Source: a virus. Taken from it: 64,000 nucleotides of DNA. Location of the stretch: the IMG/VR virus record IMGVR_UViG_3300029922_000054, positions 1 through 64,000 of that record. One strand, 5' to 3'. Positions 8,707-30,529 of this stretch are shown piece by piece. Every line of letters begins with the position of its first letter. Positions within the stretch are counted from its first letter, which is position 1. Position numbers and translations under genes: made by a program. Below the pieces are notes generated by a model, which saw only the letters and a program-made list of their open reading frames with translations, had not been told where the DNA came from and searched no databases.

Positions 8707-8731
8707 CAGGACTCTGACCATTTGAGTCCTG
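8707..8731 (+). promoter_or_regulatory. Motif-built leader hairpin before 8778 gene
   Basis: CAGGACTC (8707-8714) and GAGTCCTG (8724-8731) are a perfect 8-bp inverted repeat with a 9-base loop, placed between the stop at 8696 and the start at 8778. It lacks a U-run, so it may be a weak terminator, an RNA-processing site or a translational element. Confidence 0.55.
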
Positions 8732-8777: not shown

Positions 8778-9428
8778 ATGCCAAGATATGGAAACAATGC
8801 ACGCGGGGTTCGTAAGATGATCGCCGACGATAAAGCTGAAGCCCACGTACAGCGCACCCAGCCCAAAGTATGCGGTTGCGGCTATCCTCCTCATGTGGGA
8901 CGCTGCCAGCCCAAGCTAATGCCATCCCCACCCCAGCAGGCCGTGATTATGCTCCAGCACATCATCAATCTGTTTCCCGATGAGCCAGACGTGATCTTTG
9001 TCGCAGCCGTGGCCATTGCCGACATTGCAACCGAGGCCGCCAACAACGGGACCATCGTAGACCCGCTCATGGGATCAGACTTTGTTCCTCCGAGTCCTGC
9101 ACCATGGAAATTCCACCTCGAATTGCAGCATCCCCAAAGCGATGAGCACTTGGCCGCTTGCCCATCGTGCATGATGGCGCATGACAAAGCGCTCCCCGAT
9201 GTACCGAGTCCTGCCGCCACAGCGACCGAGAGCAGCACAGGACCCATCCAGGTGTTCAGCGACCGCGAGCTGGCGACGGTGCTCTATGCGCTCAGGGAGA
9301 TTCAAATGGGGCTGCACGATACTGACGATGTACGCGAAGAAATGGCAGTCAGTGAGCACTTTGACCATTGCACACCGCTTGACGAAAGCGAGATAGACGT
9401 ACTCTGTGAACGGCTGAACCTCGCATGA
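8778..9428 (+). CDS. Unknown Cys/His-containing protein (216 aa)
   Basis: ATG at 8778 follows ACAGGAGAGACGACA. Early residues hold CGCGYPPHVGRC, a likely metal knuckle. The middle is a helical, hydrophobic stretch (VIMLQHIINLFPDEPDVIFV) that may pack as a domain, then HPQSDEHLAACPSCMMAH, a second Cys/His group. The C-terminal part is acidic and helical. The function is unknown. Three GTCCTG-type motifs fall within the gene. Confidence 0.68.
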   Translation: MPRYGNNARGVRKMIADDKAEAHVQRTQPKVCGCGYPPHVGRCQPKLMPSPPQQAVIMLQHIINLFPDEPDVIFVAAVAIADIATEAANNGTIVDPLMGSDFVPPSPAPWKFHLELQHPQSDEHLAACPSCMMAHDKALPDVPSPAATATESSTGPIQVFSDRELATVLYALREIQMGLHDTDDVREEMAVSEHFDHCTPLDESEIDVLCERLNLA

Positions 9429-9432
9429 ACCG

Positions 9433-9550
9433 GGCAGGCTTGCCCTGCCTAGGATGTCGAAGCCTGGGGCACCATGAAACCTTGGGCGGTGGTACCACAG
9501 TAGCTCTGCTTCATGGGAAACAGACTACGTGAAATACCCGGCATCCTAGG
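9433..9550 (+). promoter_or_regulatory. Structured intergenic element A
   Basis: Directly after the stop at 9428, GGCAGG/CCTGCC (9433-9449) forms a short hairpin. CCTAGGATG (9448-9456) then pairs perfectly with CATCCTAGG (9542-9550) around about 85 bases. The next start is at 9583. The two stems share CC, so they compete. I see no protein in this 154-base gap. It belongs to the same class as elements at 13.4, 13.5, 15.7, 16.0, 20.3 and 28.9 kb. Confidence 0.5.
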
Positions 9551-9582
9551 GAGCGCAAGATACTCCAGAATTGAGGAACCAA

Positions 9583-9714
9583 ATGACCATTCTTGTCCTG
9601 TTGTTCTCGCTGTTGCTGCATGTTCACCCAGTCGGACCCGAGCCCAGTCGCATCGGCGTCCATGTCTGCCATCCCTCAACTGTTACCACCCAATCCGTTC
9701 GCAGGACTCTCTAG
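9583..9714 (+). CDS. Possible small membrane protein (43 aa)
   Basis: ATG at 9583 follows TTGAGGAACCAA. The N-terminus MTILVLLFSLLLHVHP is hydrophobic enough to be a short membrane anchor or signal; the rest is polar. Its last codons coincide with a GTCCTG-motif hairpin (9702-9720), and the next gene starts 21 bases on. Function is unknown. Confidence 0.45.
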   Translation: MTILVLLFSLLLHVHPVGPEPSRIGVHVCHPSTVTTQSVRRTL

Positions 9715-9720
9715 GTCCTG
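9702..9720 (+). promoter_or_regulatory. Motif-built leader hairpin before 9736 gene
   Basis: CAGGAC (9702-9707) and GTCCTG (9715-9720) form a 6-bp stem with a 7-base loop, 15 bases before the ATG at 9736 and just before its ribosome site GAGGAG. It is in place to affect initiation. Confidence 0.5.
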
Positions 9721-13374: not shown

Positions 13375-13404
13375 CCAGCTTTCCGTGCGGTAACACGGAG
13401 AGGA

Positions 13405-13500
13405 TGCGCGGCGGGGACCAACGCGATGAGCAGAACAGCCCCACAGACGATGCGCCCGTACTGAAGACCCTCAGAAGGCTACGAAACGGGCAGCCGCGCA
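13405..13500 (+). promoter_or_regulatory. Structured intergenic element B
   Basis: TGCGCGGC (13405-13412) pairs perfectly with GCCGCGCA (13493-13500) across 80 bases in the gap after the annealing protein. An open frame of 38 codons (13404-13520, MRGGDQRDEQNSPTDD...) runs through it and cannot be excluded as a microprotein. Followed at once by element C. Confidence 0.45.
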
Positions 13501-13511
13501 CACTTCAACAA

Positions 13512-13595
13512 GGCAGGTAGGTGTCCTGCCGAAGCCGATCTAGCGTACAGCGTTGTAGTTTGACTGATGTGGCGCAAGTTGGACCGGCTTCGGCA
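13512..13595 (+). ncRNA. Structured leader element C (related to G)
   Basis: TGCCGAAGCCG (13527-13537) pairs perfectly over 11 bp with CGGCTTCGGCA (13585-13595). A shorter hairpin, GGCAGG (13512-13517) with CCTGCC (13525-13530), uses the same TGCC, so the two folds exclude each other. The 3' side (GGCAGCACATTCA) is shared with element G at 28.99 kb. Next comes CACCAGGAGACAGGACC and the ATG at 13620. A cis-acting switch is inferred. Confidence 0.5.
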
Positions 13596-13619
13596 GCACA
13601 TTCACCAGGAGACAGGACC

Positions 13620-13784
13620 ATGGACCGAACAGGACCTCAATATTGCCCTTTGTGTGGGGCTCACGAGTTTGAACAGGAAGAGGGAACCTCAACCGATGCT
13701 GAGATCCTGAAGCGCCACGATGAGATCATCGCCCTCTACAACAAACTCATCAACCTTGAACTCAATCCGCCGAAGCCAGAATAG
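13620..13784 (+). CDS. Small protein with N-terminal Cys pair (54 aa)
   Basis: ATG at 13620 directly follows structured element C and the ribosome site CCAGGAGA. The product starts MDRTGPQYCPLCGAHEFEQ, half of a zinc knuckle, and continues with a helix (ILKRHDEIIALYNKLINLEL). It may dimerise through shared metal. Function is unknown; its placement makes it the likely target of element C. Confidence 0.6.
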   Translation: MDRTGPQYCPLCGAHEFEQEEGTSTDAEILKRHDEIIALYNKLINLELNPPKPE

Positions 13785-13976: not shown

Positions 13977-14401
13977 AGAGTTTCCACATCAGCGATGTTT
14001 TGAGCGTCACCACAGGGAGGCTAGTGTCCTGCCGCCACATGGAAGGGATCTACGACATCCTCAACTTCCTCACTGGCGACAATCTGTTCACTCACCAGTT
14101 ACCGCGCGCTGGCCGCGAATGTGAGCCGTGGTTGCGCACTCAATTCCCTCAGTTGTTCCCGGATCAGCCGTTGATAGCTCTCGCCCTGACTCGTCTCGAT
14201 GAGTTAATGGAAGATGGCGACACGCGAGAGGACCGAGCCGCAAAGATAACCAAGTGGGTAGAAGAACTGCGCACCGTTCTAGAGTTGCCAGAGCAGATCC
14301 CCGTTTACGAGATGGACGAAGAGATGCACACCCACATTGACCCCGTAGAAGAACTTGGCGCTATGATAGGCGACCAGAAAGTCATCAAGGTGCAGTTATG
14401 A
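13973..14401 (+). CDS. Conserved phage protein, DUF7736-like (142 aa)
   Basis: ATG at 13973 overlaps the preceding stop. The N-terminal block SDVLSVTTGRLVSCRHMEGI followed by YDILNFLTGDNLFTHQLPRA and CEPW is a sequence I recall from many phages as a domain of unknown function (DUF7736, from memory). The rest is helical and acidic. It is coupled (ATGA) to the nuclease gene, so it may work in the recombination module. Confidence 0.62.
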   Translation: MKSFHISDVLSVTTGRLVSCRHMEGIYDILNFLTGDNLFTHQLPRAGRECEPWLRTQFPQLFPDQPLIALALTRLDELMEDGDTREDRAAKITKWVEELRTVLELPEQIPVYEMDEEMHTHIDPVEELGAMIGDQKVIKVQL

Positions 14402-15708
14402 CACGTCCAGTTCCACCCCTCACGCAGACATTGAGTAACGAGATGAGTTGCGAATACGGATACTCCCTCGTGGAGATCCAAGGCCTGAAGACGCCGAGCA
14501 CACCCGCCAGTTGGCGCGGCACAGACATTCATGAAGCTCTGGCGCCCTACGCCATGCACTGCGCACAGAAGCACGTCCCCGCAGACTTCATGTTCCTCGA
14601 CTCGCTCACCAGCAGCCTGGGAGAAGAGGCCGCAAGCATTCTTGAGTCCTGCCGCGACAATCTTACAATCGATTGGCAGAACCTGTTTGCCTGCGAGATT
14701 CTGTGCGGACTTGACCGCGACTTTCAGCCCACCTATGCAATCGACCATGATGGCAAGCCCCAGCCCATCAATCATGTGTGGGGATTGGACGCCAACGGAA
14801 CCGAACCATCTTACTGCGGGACACTGGACGTGATCTACCTCATGCCCGGCGGCAAGGTTGCGCGCATCGTGGACTGGAAGAGTCACCCGCGGCCATTCGA
14901 TGCCGACACCATCCAGGGCAAGATGTACAGCCTATTTCTGTTCATGCACCTGCCCGAGTTGACCGAAGTTGAGTTTGGGCTCCGGTTCGTGCGCTATCAA
15001 AATGTGACCAAGACACACAAATACTTCCGCTCTGACGTGCCGCAGATGATGGAGGACGTTCGCAGGACACGCAATCGGCAGTTGGACATTCACCGCAAGG
15101 TGGAAGAGGGCGGCGAACTGCGGTGCCATGGTGGCTCTCATTGCGTTTACTGCCCGTGCGCCATCGACCCCATCGGCATCCCCTGCCCCAACGGTGCGCT
15201 GAATCCGATGCTCAAGAGTCCTGCGGAGATGCTGAACTGGATGCTGTCGACCGAGGTTCAGTTGCGCCAAGTGAAGGACGCGCTCAAGCAGTTCGTCGAC
15301 GGGACTCAGGAACCAGTCGTGAGTATCGACGCGAACGGAAAGGCATATACCTACGGTCCGAAGCCACGCGAGAAGGTCACCTATCCGCTGTTCGAGGGCA
15401 GTCTCGAAGAGGGCTTCAACATGCCCATCCTCGATGCACTGTTGGACTGGGTGAGGGCCAACCCGAAAGACTTGGTTCCGCGTAAGGGCAGCCAGCCGTG
15501 GTTCAACAATCTCGCCATCGGCGCGACGAAGCTGAACAGCTATCTCAAGGCCAACAAGCGCGAGATACTGCACAACAGCATTCGCGGACTGGCAAAGATT
15601 GAGACGGTCGTCCAGTTGGGAATTACGCGAGACGCCAGTGTGGACGATGGCCAGGGCTCCGAGTATCACACCTGGGATGCGTCCGGGGATGAGTTGATTG
15701 ATTTCTAA
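14398..15708 (+). CDS. Cas4/RecB-type PD-(D/E)XK nuclease
   Basis: The 436-residue protein has the family layout: an N-terminal GTDIHEALAPY motif, then GTLDVIYLMPGG with the metal-binding Asp, RIVDWKS as the D-x-K catalytic motif, and TIQGKMYSLFLF as the QxxxY motif. A Cys cluster after it (CHGGSHCVYCPC and IPC) is in place for the iron-sulphur cluster seen in Cas4/AddB nucleases. It likely resects DNA ends for the annealing protein at 12088. ATG 14398 overlaps the upstream stop. Confidence 0.8.
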   Translation: MTRPVPPLTQTLSNEMSCEYGYSLVEIQGLKTPSTPASWRGTDIHEALAPYAMHCAQKHVPADFMFLDSLTSSLGEEAASILESCRDNLTIDWQNLFACEILCGLDRDFQPTYAIDHDGKPQPINHVWGLDANGTEPSYCGTLDVIYLMPGGKVARIVDWKSHPRPFDADTIQGKMYSLFLFMHLPELTEVEFGLRFVRYQNVTKTHKYFRSDVPQMMEDVRRTRNRQLDIHRKVEEGGELRCHGGSHCVYCPCAIDPIGIPCPNGALNPMLKSPAEMLNWMLSTEVQLRQVKDALKQFVDGTQEPVVSIDANGKAYTYGPKPREKVTYPLFEGSLEEGFNMPILDALLDWVRANPKDLVPRKGSQPWFNNLAIGATKLNSYLKANKREILHNSIRGLAKIETVVQLGITRDASVDDGQGSEYHTWDASGDELIDF

Positions 15709-15712
15709 CAGT

Positions 15713-15805
15713 TTGCGCGGCTTTACCGGGGTAAGCAGGACTGCCCGCTAGATTGAACGTCCTTTGCTCGGCTGAAACCTGAGCGTCGCAATCTAGCCCG
15801 CGCAA
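15713..15805 (+). promoter_or_regulatory. Structured intergenic element D
   Basis: TTGCGCGG (15713-15720) pairs with CCGCGCAA (15798-15805), enclosing TTACC/GGTAA (15723-15734) and a 9-bp stem GCTAGATTG (15747-15755) with CAATCTAGC (15789-15797). This gives a branched fold that fills the gap between the nuclease and the 54-residue gene, whose ribosome site follows at once. Confidence 0.5.
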
Positions 15806-15991: not shown

Positions 15992-15995
15992 CAGT

Positions 15996-16128
15996 TCGTG
16001 GGGCTACGGCCTGTAGAAGAACAGGACCCTCTGGGGGAGACGACCCTGGATATGAAATGTGAGGATCGTTCCGAACGTGCTCCCGTAGCGGCTTGACCGG
16101 CTAGAGCGTTCGCCTCACAGCCCCACGA
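15996..16128 (+). promoter_or_regulatory. Structured intergenic element E
   Basis: TCGTGGGGCT (15996-16005) pairs perfectly over 10 bp with AGCCCCACGA (16119-16128) around 113 bases. Like element D it begins with AACAGTT right after a stop codon and carries a CAGGAC motif on the 5' side. The SbcC-like gene starts 40 bases later. No protein is seen in it. Confidence 0.5.
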
Positions 16129-16167
16129 TTCACCCGCCTCCCGCCAGAGGCAAACAGAAAGGGAATC

Positions 16168-20343: not shown

Positions 20344-20344
20344 C

Positions 20345-20457
20345 CGTGGTACTCTCGCTCGTGCGTGGAGGCAGGACTCTTATTGGCGGTAGGGGTCCTG
20401 CCAGCGGCACCACGCCGAGCGGTCGATGCGTCCAGGTGCTCCTTTCCATCTGGACGC
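20345..20457 (+). terminator. Structured element H and possible terminator hairpin
   Basis: CGTGGT/ACCACG (20345-20414) encloses GGCAGGAC (20370-20377) paired with GTCCTGCC (20395-20402), and GCGTCCAG (20428-20435) pairs with CTGGACGC (20450-20457). No strong U-run follows, so termination is only possible. The remaining gap to 20559 has TTTTCAG/CTGAAAA (20470-20495) and a TTGACA at 20514 without a good -10. Confidence 0.45.
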
Positions 20458-20559
20458 TCCCGCCAAACCTTTTCAGTCACCGCCATGGCTGAAAATAACC
20501 CGAAAAATAATCCTTGACAACACTTCACCAGATTCTCTCTGACCGCCATTGGAGACAAC

Positions 20560-22565: not shown

Positions 22566-22616
22566 GTGATAAGGTTGTGGAGTGTCGGGACGCCAATCCC
22601 GGCAAAGCCTTATCGC
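22566..22616 (+). promoter_or_regulatory. Nested hairpin before the HNH gene
   Basis: GTGATAAGG (22566-22574) pairs with CCTTATCGC (22608-22616), with one G-U pair, and encloses TGTCGGGA (22583-22590) paired with TCCCGGCA (22597-22604). It lies in the 112-base gap after the methyltransferase and ends 14 bases before the HNH start, next to its ribosome site. It differs in sequence from the other elements. Confidence 0.45.
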
Positions 22617-22630
22617 TTATAGGAGCGAGA

Positions 22631-23374
22631 ATGACACCCCACGAATCTAGTATACCTGTCGGCCTGTGCCAGTGTGGATGCGGTCAGAAAACACCTATAG
22701 CCCAGCGAACGCGCACTGGGGACGATGTATTCAAAGGATTCCCTTTGAGATTCATCCTCAACCATCATGCAAAGCTGCAAAAGAGAACAGTTCTGACTGG
22801 GTGCATCTGCGGCAATGCTGATTGCTCTATCCCTTATGGGCTTTGTCATTGCGGTTGCGGGAAGCGCACACGGACAGCGAGAGTAAGCAATGCTGCCCGG
22901 CATCGCGTCAAAGGCCAACCTTATCGCTATTGCCACGGACATGCCCTATGCTTATCCGGCCCCGAATATCTTATCGAGGATCGCGGTTACAAAACCCCTT
23001 GTTGGGTGTGGCAGAGACACATTAACCACAAAGGATATGGCATGATGCGTGACTTAGAGAAGTCAGGGAAACTGCGCTCTGCCCATCGGACTTATTACGA
23101 GCGCAAGTTCGGCCCTATCCCTGAAGACCTCACCTTGGATCATCTTTGTCGTGTTCGGTCCTGCGTTAATCCCGATCATCTGGAAGCTGTGCCGCTTGTT
23201 GTGAATGTTGATCGCGGAATTTCATGTACCATCACGGCCGAGCAGATTTCCAAGACGAAACGCTTGCTCGCTCTGGGGCATATCCAGGTTGATGTTGCAT
23301 CTTTGGTGGGCATTTCTCAGGCGGCTGTTAGCGACATAAATCTTGGGAAGAAAGATCATCGGCTCAATGGGTAA
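22631..23374 (+). CDS. HNH homing-type endonuclease with paired Cys motifs
   Basis: ATG at 22631 follows TATAGGAGCGAGA. Two copies of a Cys motif, GLCQCGCGQKT and GLCHCGCGKRT, lie at about residues 14 and 70. The HNH core follows (CWVWQRHINHKGYG, LDHLCRVRSCVNPDHLEAV) and the C-terminus has a helix-turn-helix-like part (QVDVASLVGISQAAVSDINL). The layout is that of free-standing phage homing nucleases. It sits between methyltransferase and helicase genes, has only one GTCCTG motif, and is probably an insertion. Confidence 0.78.
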   Translation: MTPHESSIPVGLCQCGCGQKTPIAQRTRTGDDVFKGFPLRFILNHHAKLQKRTVLTGCICGNADCSIPYGLCHCGCGKRTRTARVSNAARHRVKGQPYRYCHGHALCLSGPEYLIEDRGYKTPCWVWQRHINHKGYGMMRDLEKSGKLRSAHRTYYERKFGPIPEDLTLDHLCRVRSCVNPDHLEAVPLVVNVDRGISCTITAEQISKTKRLLALGHIQVDVASLVGISQAAVSDINLGKKDHRLNG

Positions 23375-27165: not shown

Positions 27166-28896
27166 ATGGCAATCACTATCAAGACAGGGAAGGAAGCTCG
27201 CGCAGAGATCCTTTCAGGAGCAACGCAACTCAACCAGGTAGTCAGTTCGTCACTGGGCCCTGCCGGCCGCTGGAGCCTGTTTCGGCACGGCAACATGGTC
27301 GTACTCAGCAAAGACGGCGTTACGCTGGCAAACGAGGTCAACCTCCCCGGCGTATACGAGTCTATGGGGGCCGACCGGCTCAAGGGTGCAGCGCGTCAAG
27401 CAGTCGACGAAGCTGGCGACGGGACCACCACAGCCGTCCTGCTGGGCCACGCCATCCTTGAGGCAGGACACAAGGCCATCAATGATGGTGCGGAGCCTGT
27501 GAAGCTCACCCGCGGCATTGAGCGTGCGCGGAAGGCCATTGTGGGCGATTTCGACCAGAAGAAACGGAAGTTCACAGGCGGCATTCTGGAGTCGTTCGCC
27601 ATTCCCTGCACTCCGGAGCTTGCTTTTCAGGCAGCGCGGATCAGCGCCAACGGAGACGACACGATCGCCAAGGCCGTCTCCGAAGTAGTGCTGAAGGTGG
27701 GCACTGACGGAGATGTGACGATCGCCAACAGCTACTCGACAGAGCATTTAGTCGAATTCCAGGAGGGGATGGGGATCAACACAGGACTCGTACATCCCGG
27801 CTTTGTGAATGATGCCTATCGGAACCGCGCCATGCTTGAGAAGGCTATGGTCCTGTGCGTCAACAGACAAATCTCAACTTCCGTTGAAGTCGTCAACATC
27901 ATGAAGAAAGCGGCGCAGAAGGCGAAGTTAGACAATGTGCCATTCTCCCTGTTGGTGATCGCTGACGAGTACACACCCGAGGCGTTGGGACAGTTCCTGC
28001 ATCACCGGAAGCCGCAGAACTTGGGCGGCGATGGGCTGGAGATCGCCATCGTTCGGGCGCCACTCTTCAAGGACTCGCGCCGGGATATTCTTGAGGATAT
28101 TTGCCTGCTGACCCAGGGAACTCGAGTAGAGAACCCGCAGGGGAAGGCGCTCGAACAGTTGAGCGTCAACTCTTTCGGTCTTGCCGAGCGCGTAATCGTC
28201 ACCCAGAGCCGGACCACAATCACTGCCGGCACGTCCGATGACGACTACAGGACCAGTACCATCGAGCCCTACCTCGCGCGCCTCAAGGCCATGTCGGAAG
28301 ACACGTCACTGCGCGCAGACGAGATCAGCACGCTCAAGAGCCGGCTGGCAGCTCTTACTGGCGGCGTGGCCGTCATCAAGGTTGGCGGGACCAGCATCAA
28401 CGAAGTGGAGAAGCTGAAGTTCCAGGTAGAGGACGCCATCCACGCCACACGGGCAGCCGTCTCAGAGGGCGTTGTACCGGGCGGCGGTAGCGCGCTGCTG
28501 TTCGCCAAAGAGGCAGCGTCCGACGTTGACGATGACTCGCTACTGGAGGACTCAGACGAGAGCAGGGGCTACGTGCTGCTGCTCGACTGCCTCTCGAAGC
28601 CCATCCAGCAGATTGCTTTGAACGCAGGGTACGACGGAGAGAAGATCGCTCAGGCCGTACATAATGCGAATCATGGTCCTTACGCAAACGACCGCAATGG
28701 CTTCGACGCTTCCACAGGACTCTACCCTGCAGACATGTTTGAGGCTGGTATTGTGGATCCACTTCGAGTTGTCCGCTCGTCACTCAACGCCGCGGCAAGT
28801 GAAGCCTGCTTGCTCCTGCTCACCGAGGTTGTGCTGGGCAACATTCCAGAGCCAGCACAGCAGCAGATGAGCGGCCAAGTCGGTCCTCGTCGGTAA
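27166..28896 (+). CDS. groEL: GroEL-type chaperonin, divergent
   Basis: The 576-residue protein aligns by eye along the whole of GroEL. It has SSSLGPAGRW, the ATP site KDGVTLANEV and AGDGTTTAVLLG (P-loop equivalent), the apical domain with EFQEGMGINTGLVHPGF, and the conserved GGVAVIKVGGTS, VEDAIHATRAAVSEGVVPGGG with the catalytic Asp of VEDA. No Gly-Gly-Met tail is seen; it ends SGQVGPRR. It would form the folding chamber with the phage GroES. Ribosome site AAAGGAAAACAGGAAA. Confidence 0.93.
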   Translation: MAITIKTGKEARAEILSGATQLNQVVSSSLGPAGRWSLFRHGNMVVLSKDGVTLANEVNLPGVYESMGADRLKGAARQAVDEAGDGTTTAVLLGHAILEAGHKAINDGAEPVKLTRGIERARKAIVGDFDQKKRKFTGGILESFAIPCTPELAFQAARISANGDDTIAKAVSEVVLKVGTDGDVTIANSYSTEHLVEFQEGMGINTGLVHPGFVNDAYRNRAMLEKAMVLCVNRQISTSVEVVNIMKKAAQKAKLDNVPFSLLVIADEYTPEALGQFLHHRKPQNLGGDGLEIAIVRAPLFKDSRRDILEDICLLTQGTRVENPQGKALEQLSVNSFGLAERVIVTQSRTTITAGTSDDDYRTSTIEPYLARLKAMSEDTSLRADEISTLKSRLAALTGGVAVIKVGGTSINEVEKLKFQVEDAIHATRAAVSEGVVPGGGSALLFAKEAASDVDDDSLLEDSDESRGYVLLLDCLSKPIQQIALNAGYDGEKIAQAVHNANHGPYANDRNGFDASTGLYPADMFEAGIVDPLRVVRSSLNAAASEACLLLLTEVVLGNIPEPAQQQMSGQVGPRR

Positions 28897-28905
28897 CCAT
28901 CAACT

Positions 28906-28994
28906 GGCAGGGTGTCCTGCCAAGACGGCTGGGGCCGCAAGGCAAGGAATGGTAGACCTCTCGCCAGAAGGAGAGGATGCCAGCCGTCTTGGCA
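28906..28994 (+). ncRNA. Structured leader element G (related to C)
   Basis: TGCCAAGACGGCTGG (28918-28932) pairs perfectly over 15 bp with CCAGCCGTCTTGGCA (28980-28994). An inner CCTCTC/GAGAGG hairpin lies at 28957-28976. A competing 5' hairpin GGCAG (28906-28910) with CTGCC (28917-28921) shares its CTGCC with the long stem. GGCAGCACATTCA on the 3' side is identical to element C. The next gene starts at 29025. It is a strong candidate for a cis-acting RNA. Confidence 0.6.
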
Positions 28995-29024
28995 GCACAT
29001 TCAAACCAAAAAAGGAGAAATTCA

Positions 29025-29306
29025 ATGTCTTGGAGCATCTCACTATCGGGTGGAAAACAACAGGTGCAGGACGAATTGCGCCATGCGGCAATCGAGATCA
29101 GTCACACAATGGACGCTCTTGATCGCGCGTCTGGCCCTCTCGTCAACGTGTCAGTCAGCGGGTCAGCGTATGCGAGTCCTGCTGATTCAAACGGCAACAG
29201 CAACAACGGAACAGGCGCATCTTTCAGTGTCGGAAGCTATGCGCCCGAGCCGCCTCCCGCTCAGCCGCAGGACATTCCCGCAGAAGCTGCACCGTCCGCA
29301 AGCTAA
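29025..29306 (+). CDS. Small secretion-free Ser/Pro-rich protein (93 aa)
   Basis: ATG at 29025 follows AAAAAAGGAGAAATTCA, right after element G. The first half is a small domain (SWSISLSGGKQQVQDELRHA, then SHTMDALDRASGPLVNVSVS). The end is Asn/Gly/Pro/Ala-rich and disordered (EPPPAQPQDIPAEAAPSAS). It is the last gene of the rightward block and converges with the terminase; the 17-base gap shows no clear terminator. Function is unknown. Confidence 0.6.
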   Translation: MSWSISLSGGKQQVQDELRHAAIEISHTMDALDRASGPLVNVSVSGSAYASPADSNGNSNNGTGASFSVGSYAPEPPPAQPQDIPAEAAPSAS

Positions 29307-29323
29307 ACCGCCAACCGCAGGAC

Positions 29324-30529
29324 TCACCGACCGTAAACCCCATGGCGCTTTCGCAGATCCACTGTGCAGGCGCCATGTTTCTTTGTAGGCCGTCCGTCTG
29401 CTCCCAGCTTCCCCTGCCGTGCCAGATCGCTCATCATCCACTTGCTTGCAATCTGCGCTGTGAATGGGTCCTTGCCCTCAATGGCGGCCGCTAAGGCCTC
29501 GTTGGGGTCGATTCCTGCCGGGTTACGGAGAGTGCCCAGGATCTCTTTGAGGGTGTCGAGCAAGTGGTTGTTTTTATTTTGCAATCCCTCTGACGGGTTC
29601 CGCGTGAGCAACTGCCGGCTCGTCATCTCGACTCGCTTGGCGCGCTTCATTTCCCACAGCAGGTTGGGGCAGTCGAACTCATGCAGGCCAGGCTGAGGAC
29701 GTTCACTCGGATAGCGGCATACGATGTACAGACGGGGTTTGAGTCCTGTCCAGTGCCCGTCCAGGGTTGAGATTCCCCTCCACCAATCAGACATGACCCA
29801 CTCGACGAATGTCACGTCAGAGCGCACGCCGTCGTAGGGGCTCATCTTCCACATGTTGTTTTTCTTGTAGGTCTGGTAGATGTTCGTGGGAGCGCCCTTG
29901 TCGGTGGCCACGGCGTCATAGAAGATGGACGGGTCAGCTTTGATCCAGCGCGCCCGCTCCAGGTCAGGCATCTTCTTCATGACTTTGACGTTCTCATCGA
30001 CGTTGTTATTCCACTCGGCCGAGCGGTAGCGGTAGAACTCCCCAGCCAGATACAGTTCAGGAGGATTCTTGGCTCCTGTGACGGGATTGATCGTTTCCTT
30101 GGGGACGTAGCCCTTGAGCAACGCCGTGGCATTCGTGACGCCATGATCGAATCCGGCCACAATGTCGGGGTTGGCTGGCATGTAGGGCGGCCCCGGATAC
30201 CAGTTCGGGTCAGAGATCACGACGATCTGGTAAAGCTCCTCATTGCCCAGGATGGAGCCAAAGACAGCCTCGCCGCCGGTGGCGTAGGGGTCCATCTCCT
30301 GCTCTTTCTTCCACCGGGCAGGTGAGGCATAGCGAGAGGCGTTCTCTTCGTACCATTTTGCGCCCTTTGGCGTCTCTGGATCACGGTCAGGTATGGCAGA
30401 GTAATGCAGGCTCATGATTGTCAAGCCATTTTTTTTACGCCTGACTGTTACTCCTCTGATTACCTCCATCCGGGTCTGCGGAGGAACGTCCTTGAGCCTC
30501 TTGATGGCCTCTTGTAGTTTGGTGGGCAT
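29324..30529 (-). CDS. terL: Terminase large subunit, nuclease half
   Basis: The 401-residue frame begins with ATG 30529, one codon after the TAA that ends the ATPase half, in the same frame. It carries LHYSAIPDRDPETPKG, then WKKEQEMDPYATGG and the start of an RNase-H-like nuclease (DIVAGFDHGVTNATALL, with the first catalytic Asp). A later Asp (TFVEWVMSDWW region) may complete the site. It cuts concatemeric DNA during packaging. The single intervening stop makes a split or readthrough product likely. Confidence 0.75.
   Translation of the reverse strand: MPTKLQEAIKRLKDVPPQTRMEVIRGVTVRRKKNGLTIMSLHYSAIPDRDPETPKGAKWYEENASRYASPARWKKEQEMDPYATGGEAVFGSILGNEELYQIVVISDPNWYPGPPYMPANPDIVAGFDHGVTNATALLKGYVPKETINPVTGAKNPPELYLAGEFYRYRSAEWNNNVDENVKVMKKMPDLERARWIKADPSIFYDAVATDKGAPTNIYQTYKKNNMWKMSPYDGVRSDVTFVEWVMSDWWRGISTLDGHWTGLKPRLYIVCRYPSERPQPGLHEFDCPNLLWEMKRAKRVEMTSRQLLTRNPSEGLQNKNNHLLDTLKEILGTLRNPAGIDPNEALAAAIEGKDPFTAQIASKWMMSDLARQGKLGADGRPTKKHGACTVDLRKRHGVYGR

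What the first reader, a model, noticed from the sequence alone, without database searches (positions are those of the whole stretch)
13512..13619. Two related leader elements (C and G) with mutually exclusive stems
Element C at 13.5 kb and element G at 28.9 kb share the plan: a short GGCAG/CTGCC hairpin containing GTGTCCTGCC, a long 11- or 15-bp stem that re-uses the same CTGCC, and the identical 3' GGCAGCACATTCA before the ribosome site. The stem sequences differ but pairing is kept, which is covariation. This is how riboswitches and attenuators behave.
Basis: seen in the sequence. Interest (0 to 1): 0.82.

Follow-up and report, generated by a model that had tools for sequence, protein, structure and literature searches.

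The report
Shared switch-like RNA hairpin between phage genes
A roughly 95-base RNA hairpin unit recurs between genes of otherwise different uncultured phages: its ends and a competing small hairpin are fixed while its long stem changes letters in matched pairs, so it is a real, unlisted, horizontally shared RNA element, but not a demonstrated riboswitch.

Summary
Elements C (13512-13604) and G (28906-29003) share GGCAGG...GTGTCCTGCC and GGCAGCACATTCA around perfect 12- and 16-bp stems of different sequence. Pattern and covariance-model searches found nine further contigs with the unit, giving seven distinct sequences: 11 of 22 pairs show double-sided changes (27 compensatory cells against 9 shuffled). 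A second in-window family (9433-9559) repeats the plan with another loop (CTTGC) and a matching 3' strand (GCAAG), so the base pairing covaries too.

Competition is real by sequence: hairpin GGCAGG/CCTGCC and the base of the long stem need the same CCTGCC strand. The upper stem survives in both states, and the predicted energy gap is 1-9 kcal/mol, but at equilibrium the long stem wins almost completely. There is no terminator, start-site masking, ligand-like conserved core, common downstream gene or Rfam match; one copy precedes a tRNA-like gene. "Riboswitch/attenuator" is therefore not supported.

New: the unit behaves as a discrete cassette. It is the only similarity, apart from one 64-bp leader, between the window and a 58-kb distant phage, and is cleanly absent from one related spacer. 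Best reading: a sense-oriented intercistronic RNA cassette, probably for transcript processing or insulation, with co-transcriptional strand exchange.

The parts
13512..13517 (+). Element C strand a (GGCAGG): 5' arm of hairpin 1
13521..13530 (+). Element C strand b (GTGTCCTGCC): 3' arm of hairpin 1, and 5' base of the long stem
13531..13537 (+). Element C variable upper stem, 5' arm (GAAGCCG)
13538..13584 (+). Element C loop region, 47 nt; similar only to the L034 copy
13585..13591 (+). Element C variable upper stem, 3' arm (CGGCTTC)
13592..13604 (+). Element C strand a' (GGCAGCACATTCA): pairs with b in the long-stem state
13607..13622 (+). Shine-Dalgarno AGGAG (13607-13611) and ATG (13620) of a 54-aa ORF 13620-13784
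13375..13511 (+). Second structured leader 5' of element C: hairpin CCGTG..CACGG, then closing stem 13405-13412/13493-13500 (TGCGCGGC/GCCGCGCA) with counterparts in related phages
28906..28911 (+). Element G strand a (GGCAGG), 9 nt after the GroEL-like stop codon
28912..28921 (+). Element G strand b (GTGTCCTGCC)
28922..28932 (+). Element G variable upper stem, 5' arm (AAGACGGCTGG)
28933..28979 (+). Element G loop region; 45 of 47 bases identical in L113/L119
28980..28990 (+). Element G variable upper stem, 3' arm (CCAGCCGTCTT)
28991..29003 (+). Element G strand a' (GGCAGCACATTCA)
29013..29027 (+). Shine-Dalgarno AGGAG and ATG (29025) of a 93-aa ORF 29025-29306
9433..9559 (+). Element B, same plan with other letters: hairpin GGCAGG-CTTGC-CCTGCC 9433-9449; long stem base CTTGC/GCAAG; stem CCTAGGATG 9448-9456/CATCCTAGG 9542-9550; 4 nt after the stop codon at 9426-9428

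Best explanation
C, G and (second family) B are cis-acting RNA hairpin cassettes between cistrons of phage polycistronic messages. Shown by sequence: strand a (GGCAGG) and strand a' (GGCAGCACATTCA) are both complementary to strand b (GTGTCCTGCC); a variable upper stem V/V' brings b and a' together; V/V' covaries, and in family B the loop/a' pair differs in a matched way (GTGT/ACAT against CTTGC/GCAAG). Inferred: as the RNA is made, hairpin a:b forms first, then V:V' zips and a' displaces a, giving an 18-23 bp helix whose 3' end stops just short of the next Shine-Dalgarno or a tRNA 5' end. In six of nine copies strand a lies 4-9 nt after a stop codon, so a terminating ribosome could cover a and favour the long stem. 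I think the long helix most likely acts generically on the transcript, as a processing, protection or insulation site of the RNase III type, rather than sensing a ligand. The cassette moves between phages as a unit. Rough probabilities: RNA-level structure 0.9; conserved two-state design 0.6; generic intercistronic processing/insulation role 0.45; RNase III itself 0.3.
For: Covariation on seven distinct sequences: 92% of cells paired; 11 of 22 pairs changed on both sides; 27 such cells against 9.0 in shuffles (0 of 500 as high) and 3-7 in slid controls. Conserved G-U pairs at the base (columns 9-116 and 10-115) and a G-U in L034 fit RNA pairing. All seven C/G-type copies lie on the strand of the flanking genes. 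In six the 3' end is 14-24 nt from an ATG; in the seventh it precedes a tRNA-like sequence. The a:b hairpin is kept where a' has drifted (L034). Family B repeats the plan with matched changes. Two-state gaps: 5.6 (C), 8.9 (G), 8.0 (L010), 2.2 (L034), 2.0 (L054), 7.3 (window B) and 0.9 (L034 B) kcal/mol. Downstream genes differ, which argues for a generic role.
Against: No transcript data, no host, no probing. At equilibrium hairpin 1 is negligible, so any exchange must be kinetic. In L034 the CTGCC/GGCAG pairs of the long stem are partly lost. C, L003 and L010 are not next to a stop codon (87-137 nt). RNase III alone does not explain the conserved GTGTCCTGCC and ACATTCA letters. The orientation count is small. 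Variable arms show almost no G-U, which a DNA palindrome would also give. L119 has G for the shared C, so its hairpin 1 has 5 rather than 6 pairs.
Confidence: 0.5

Rival explanations
1. Riboswitch or attenuator: ligand or translation state chooses between hairpin 1 and the long stem and so sets expression of the next gene.
For: Two competing structures sharing strand b, kept in two families; energy gaps of 1-9 kcal/mol; hairpin 1 close after a stop codon in 6 of 9 copies.
Against: No U-tract terminator; Shine-Dalgarno not paired by the element in the predicted folds; no conserved core, loops unrelated between types; unrelated downstream genes and one tRNA-like gene; no Rfam match.
Confidence: 0.15
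2. DNA-level mobile palindrome (REP/MITE-like or recombination site): conserved ends are recognised as DNA, and the stem is a by-product or a single-strand hairpin.
For: Behaves as a discrete unit: against 58 kb of the G016 phage the only nucleotide matches to the window are this element (112 bp, 88%) and one 64-bp leader; clean presence/absence between L010 and L037; ends TGTSCTGCC/GGCAGCACA are nearly inverted repeats.
Against: All seven copies are in sense orientation; base pairs include conserved G-U; at most two copies per genome; no nuclease linked to it; stems differ completely between copies, which simple transposition does not give.
Confidence: 0.2
3. put-like antiterminator: the nascent RNA binds RNA polymerase and makes it ignore terminators within long phage operons.
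For: About 95-nt RNA with two stem-loops and fixed base letters, generic to downstream gene. HK022 put RNAs are about 70 nt with two stem-loops (PMC9378689).
Against: put sites lie just downstream of early promoters; these lie mid-operon or near an operon's end (G is followed by convergent genes). No sequence kinship was tested or claimed.
Confidence: 0.1
4. Coding: the GTG in GTGTCCTGCC starts an N-terminal extension of the next gene.
For: In C and L003 the frame from this GTG runs open into the downstream ATG.
Against: The frame is closed by a stop in L010 and L034 and is not the downstream frame in G (ATG 29025) or L119.
Confidence: 0.02

Closest known systems
RNase III processing stems between phage early genes (T7, T3, lambda)
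   Same: Long, nearly perfect hairpins between cistrons, close upstream of the next gene or RNA; stem sequence little constrained (PMC5371410; T7 geometry from general knowledge).
   Different: Here base letters and a competing 5' hairpin are conserved across unrelated phages, and the unit is horizontally shared. Cleavage untested.
HK022 put RNA
   Same: Short cis-acting phage RNA with two stem-loops and a role not tied to one gene (PMC9378689).
   Different: put sits just after early promoters and its two stems coexist; here the 5' hairpin and the stem base compete. No sequence relation shown.
REP / REPIN / MITE-type palindromes
   Same: Small dispersed extragenic palindromes found beyond stop codons.
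   Different: REPs are 20-40 bp, high copy, mostly GTAG- or CGTC-tagged (PMC3733652, abstract). This unit is about 95 bp, one or two per genome, sense-oriented, with wholly different stems per copy.
Riboswitches and transcription attenuators
   Same: Two alternative base-pairings sharing a strand in front of a gene.
   Different: No expression platform, no conserved aptamer core, no common target gene.

Membership tests
Riboswitch | Conserved, largely unpaired ligand-binding core across homologues | tested here: not met
   Loops are unrelated between C/L034, G/L119, L003, L010 and L054 types
Riboswitch | Common class of downstream genes | tested here: not met
   Exonuclease, unknown small ORFs, tRNA-like gene
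Transcription attenuator | Intrinsic terminator (GC hairpin plus U-run) as one alternative | tested here: not met
   No U-run after hairpin 1 or the long stem in any copy (sequences)
Attenuator / translational switch | Two mutually exclusive pairings of one strand, kept in homologues | tested here: met
   a:b and a':b both possible in all copies, weaker in L034 and L119
Attenuator / translational switch | Shine-Dalgarno sequestered by the element in one state | tested here: not met
   SD is not paired by the element in the C, G, L003, L010, L034 or L119 folds
RNase III processing site | About two turns (roughly 20 bp or more) of near-continuous helix between cistrons | tested here: met
   18-23 bp including one mismatch in the predicted folds; the length criterion is from general knowledge
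RNase III processing site | Cleavage by RNase III | not testable with these tools
   No host and no transcript data
HK022 put | Two coexisting stem-loops that bind the RNA polymerase beta' zinc-binding domain | not testable with these tools
   Location differs (mid-operon); binding cannot be tested
REP / REPIN | 20-40 bp palindromes tagged with GTAG or CGTC, high copy | tested here: not met
   About 95 bp, one or two copies per contig, no shared tag
Any Rfam 15 family | Score above gathering threshold | tested here: not met
   No hit; only chance miRNA-like matches at E = 0.04 or worse

The most novel reading that the evidence does not exclude
A new superfamily of about 60-130 nt mobile phage RNA cassettes built as strand-exchange switches (5'-GGCAGG-L-CCTGCC-V...V'-GGNAG-C-L'-3', with L/L' and V/V' covarying and a recurrent C.C mismatch), dropped next to stop codons so that ribosome release at the upstream cistron decides which helix forms. 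Their stems diversify faster than their loops, possibly so that copies in one transcript do not cross-pair.
Probability: 0.2. Interest if true: 0.85.

Novelty: new variant of a known kind. Interest (0 to 1): 0.6.

Why it matters
If right, it is an undescribed RNA module that phages share independently of the genes around it, with built-in competition between two folds and strong covariation. That is a ready-made test case for how polycistronic phage messages are cut, protected or insulated. The design is short enough to test in a reporter, and the covariance model lets others search for it.

Tried and rejected
Rfam at gathering and relaxed thresholds: nothing credible. Isolated-phage collection: no nucleotide match to the 13.4-14.4 kb region or to G, and no relative of the exonuclease; GroEL only at about 35%. 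Genome collection with the exonuclease profile: one misplaced-looking MAG contig, so no host. Most pattern-scan hits were chance and were discarded because the arms do not pair. A weak model hit in G005 (L140) is coding sequence. GGCAGG hairpins in G005 and G001 (L158, L162) have no long stem. N-terminal coding extension rejected. The idea that hairpin 1 derives from the genome-wide GAGTCCTG word was dropped as unproven: L113/L119 carry the element without the word enrichment. An early scan of window 29026-29388 was one base out of frame; the ORF is 29025-29306.

Full report
Setting. The window is 64 kb of a 67.8-kb uncultured virus record. It carries a GroEL-like gene (27166-28896), a DnaB-like helicase, an SbcC-like gene, a PD-(D/E)XK exonuclease (14398-15708) and, upstream of the exonuclease, a phrog_3657 protein. 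L010 has a RecT single-strand annealing protein at the same place. Contigs with relatives of these genes were found in IMG/VR; no host could be named and isolated phages have no close relative.

The observation. Both elements are as described, with stems of 12 and 16 perfect pairs. The 16-bp stem is beyond chance; the 12-bp stem is not by itself. Folding z-scores are -3.3 and -5.5.

Homologues. Pattern scans of IMG/VR, checked for arm pairing, gave true copies in L003, L010, L054/L060/L064/L071 (one sequence in four contigs) and L113/L119 (one sequence in two). A diverged copy of C is in L034. Model R1 finds all of these, one per contig except two in the window. With C and G that is seven distinct sequences.

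Covariation. On A5 the whole helix is paired in 92% of cells; 11 of 22 pairs are changed on both sides, 27 cells against 9.0 in shuffles with 0 of 500 as high, and far above slid controls. The seven upper pairs are paired in 7 of 7 sequences with two or three pair types each. The structure used was taken from these sequences and the rows are few, but the margin is large.

Two states. Strand a (GGCAGG) and strand a' (GGCAGCACATTCA) compete for strand b (GTGTCCTGCC), and the variable upper stem stays formed in both states. Energy gap in favour of the long-stem state: 5.6 kcal/mol for C, 8.9 G, 8.0 L010, 2.2 L034, 2.0 L054; at equilibrium hairpin 1 is 1% or less. The values printed for L003 and L119 are not used because their input was misplaced by one or two bases. 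A second family, B (window 9433-9559 and L034 4835-4892), has hairpin GGCAGG-CTTGC-CCTGCC and 3' strand GGGAGCGCAA(G): the loop is complementary to its own 3' strand, in the same register and with a C.C mismatch at the same place. Its two states differ by 7.3 and 0.9 kcal/mol.

Not a riboswitch. There is no U-run, no masking of the Shine-Dalgarno by the element in the predicted folds, no conserved core, no shared downstream gene, and L054 precedes a tRNA-like sequence.

A discrete, shared unit. Against 58 kb of the G016 phage, whose homologous proteins are mostly 21-49% identical to the window's, nucleotide matches to the window are only the element (112 bp, 88%, from the stop codon to ACATTCA) and one 64-bp leader. 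L010 and L037 align on both sides of a clean presence/absence of the element. Arms change faster than loops: C/L034 10 of 14 against 9 of 47 (p = 0.0005), G/L119 6 of 22 against 2 of 47 (p = 0.01). L034 and L119 show that the unit sits beside different genes.

Geometry. In six of seven C/G-type copies ACATTCA lies 14-24 nt before an ATG. Strand a begins 4-9 nt after a stop codon in G, L034, L119, L054 and both B copies, but 87-137 nt after it in C, L003 and L010, where another structured leader intervenes.

Mechanism. Shown: conserved RNA-type pairing, competing pairings, sense orientation, cassette behaviour. Inferred: order of folding, strand exchange, influence of the terminating ribosome, and a processing/insulation output. 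The 18-23 bp helix between cistrons resembles RNase III sites (T7 geometry from general knowledge) more than anything else I could test. Many other spacers of this phage are also strongly structured (z -2.5 to -5.8 in six of eight spacers against a mean of 0.06 in genes), which again suggests a generic role.

Verdict. Real, not in Rfam, new variant of a known kind (intercistronic cis-acting RNA). The riboswitch label is not earned.

Noticed in passing
whole window, e.g. 8707-8731, 9702-9720, 20372-20400: The word GAGTCCTG/CAGGACTC occurs 54 times in 64 kb on both strands, in and between genes, and is enriched in most contigs of this phage group, but not in L033, L113 or unrelated contigs. Reason unknown.
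   Followed up: partly
13405-13500; 15713-15805; L034, L037, L036, L038, L040, L042-L044: A second stem family (TGCGCGGC..GCCGCGCA, GGTGCGCGG..CCGCGCACC, CGTGAGTCCTGC..GCAGGACTCACG) closes a variable interior in the spacer before the exonuclease, with apparent compensatory changes.
   Followed up: partly
20344-20559: 216-nt spacer folding at -85 kcal/mol (z about -5), with a 15-bp hairpin GGCAGGACTCTTATT..GGTAGGGGTCCTGCC.
   Followed up: no
15992-16167: Spacer closed by a 10-bp stem TCGTGGGGCT/AGCCCCACGA, the same style of closed leader.
   Followed up: no
L054 10265-10361: tRNA-like gene right after the element; ARAGORN with introns allowed reads tRNA-Arg(CCT) with a 22-nt insert in the anticodon loop. 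The same DNA flanks the element in L060, L064 and L071.
   Followed up: partly
22579-22640; L034 8450-8500: Leader ahead of the HNH endonuclease gene (CCGGCAAAGCCTTATCGC..) is the only other nucleotide match to the distant phage G016, and a similar stretch follows a small gene in L034.
   Followed up: no
L034 7590-8000; L119 9450-9700: Repeat-rich stretches next to the element: GGCTTGGGCATCGAG repeats in a gene before it (L034) and a long GGGTACGGGTCC simple repeat after the small ORF (L119).
   Followed up: no
L026 11820-11880, L027 11940-11975: After the GroEL-like gene, related phages have a different small hairpin, e.g. GCAGGGCT-TTCG-AGTCCTGC (UUCG tetraloop), where the window has element G.
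   Followed up: partly
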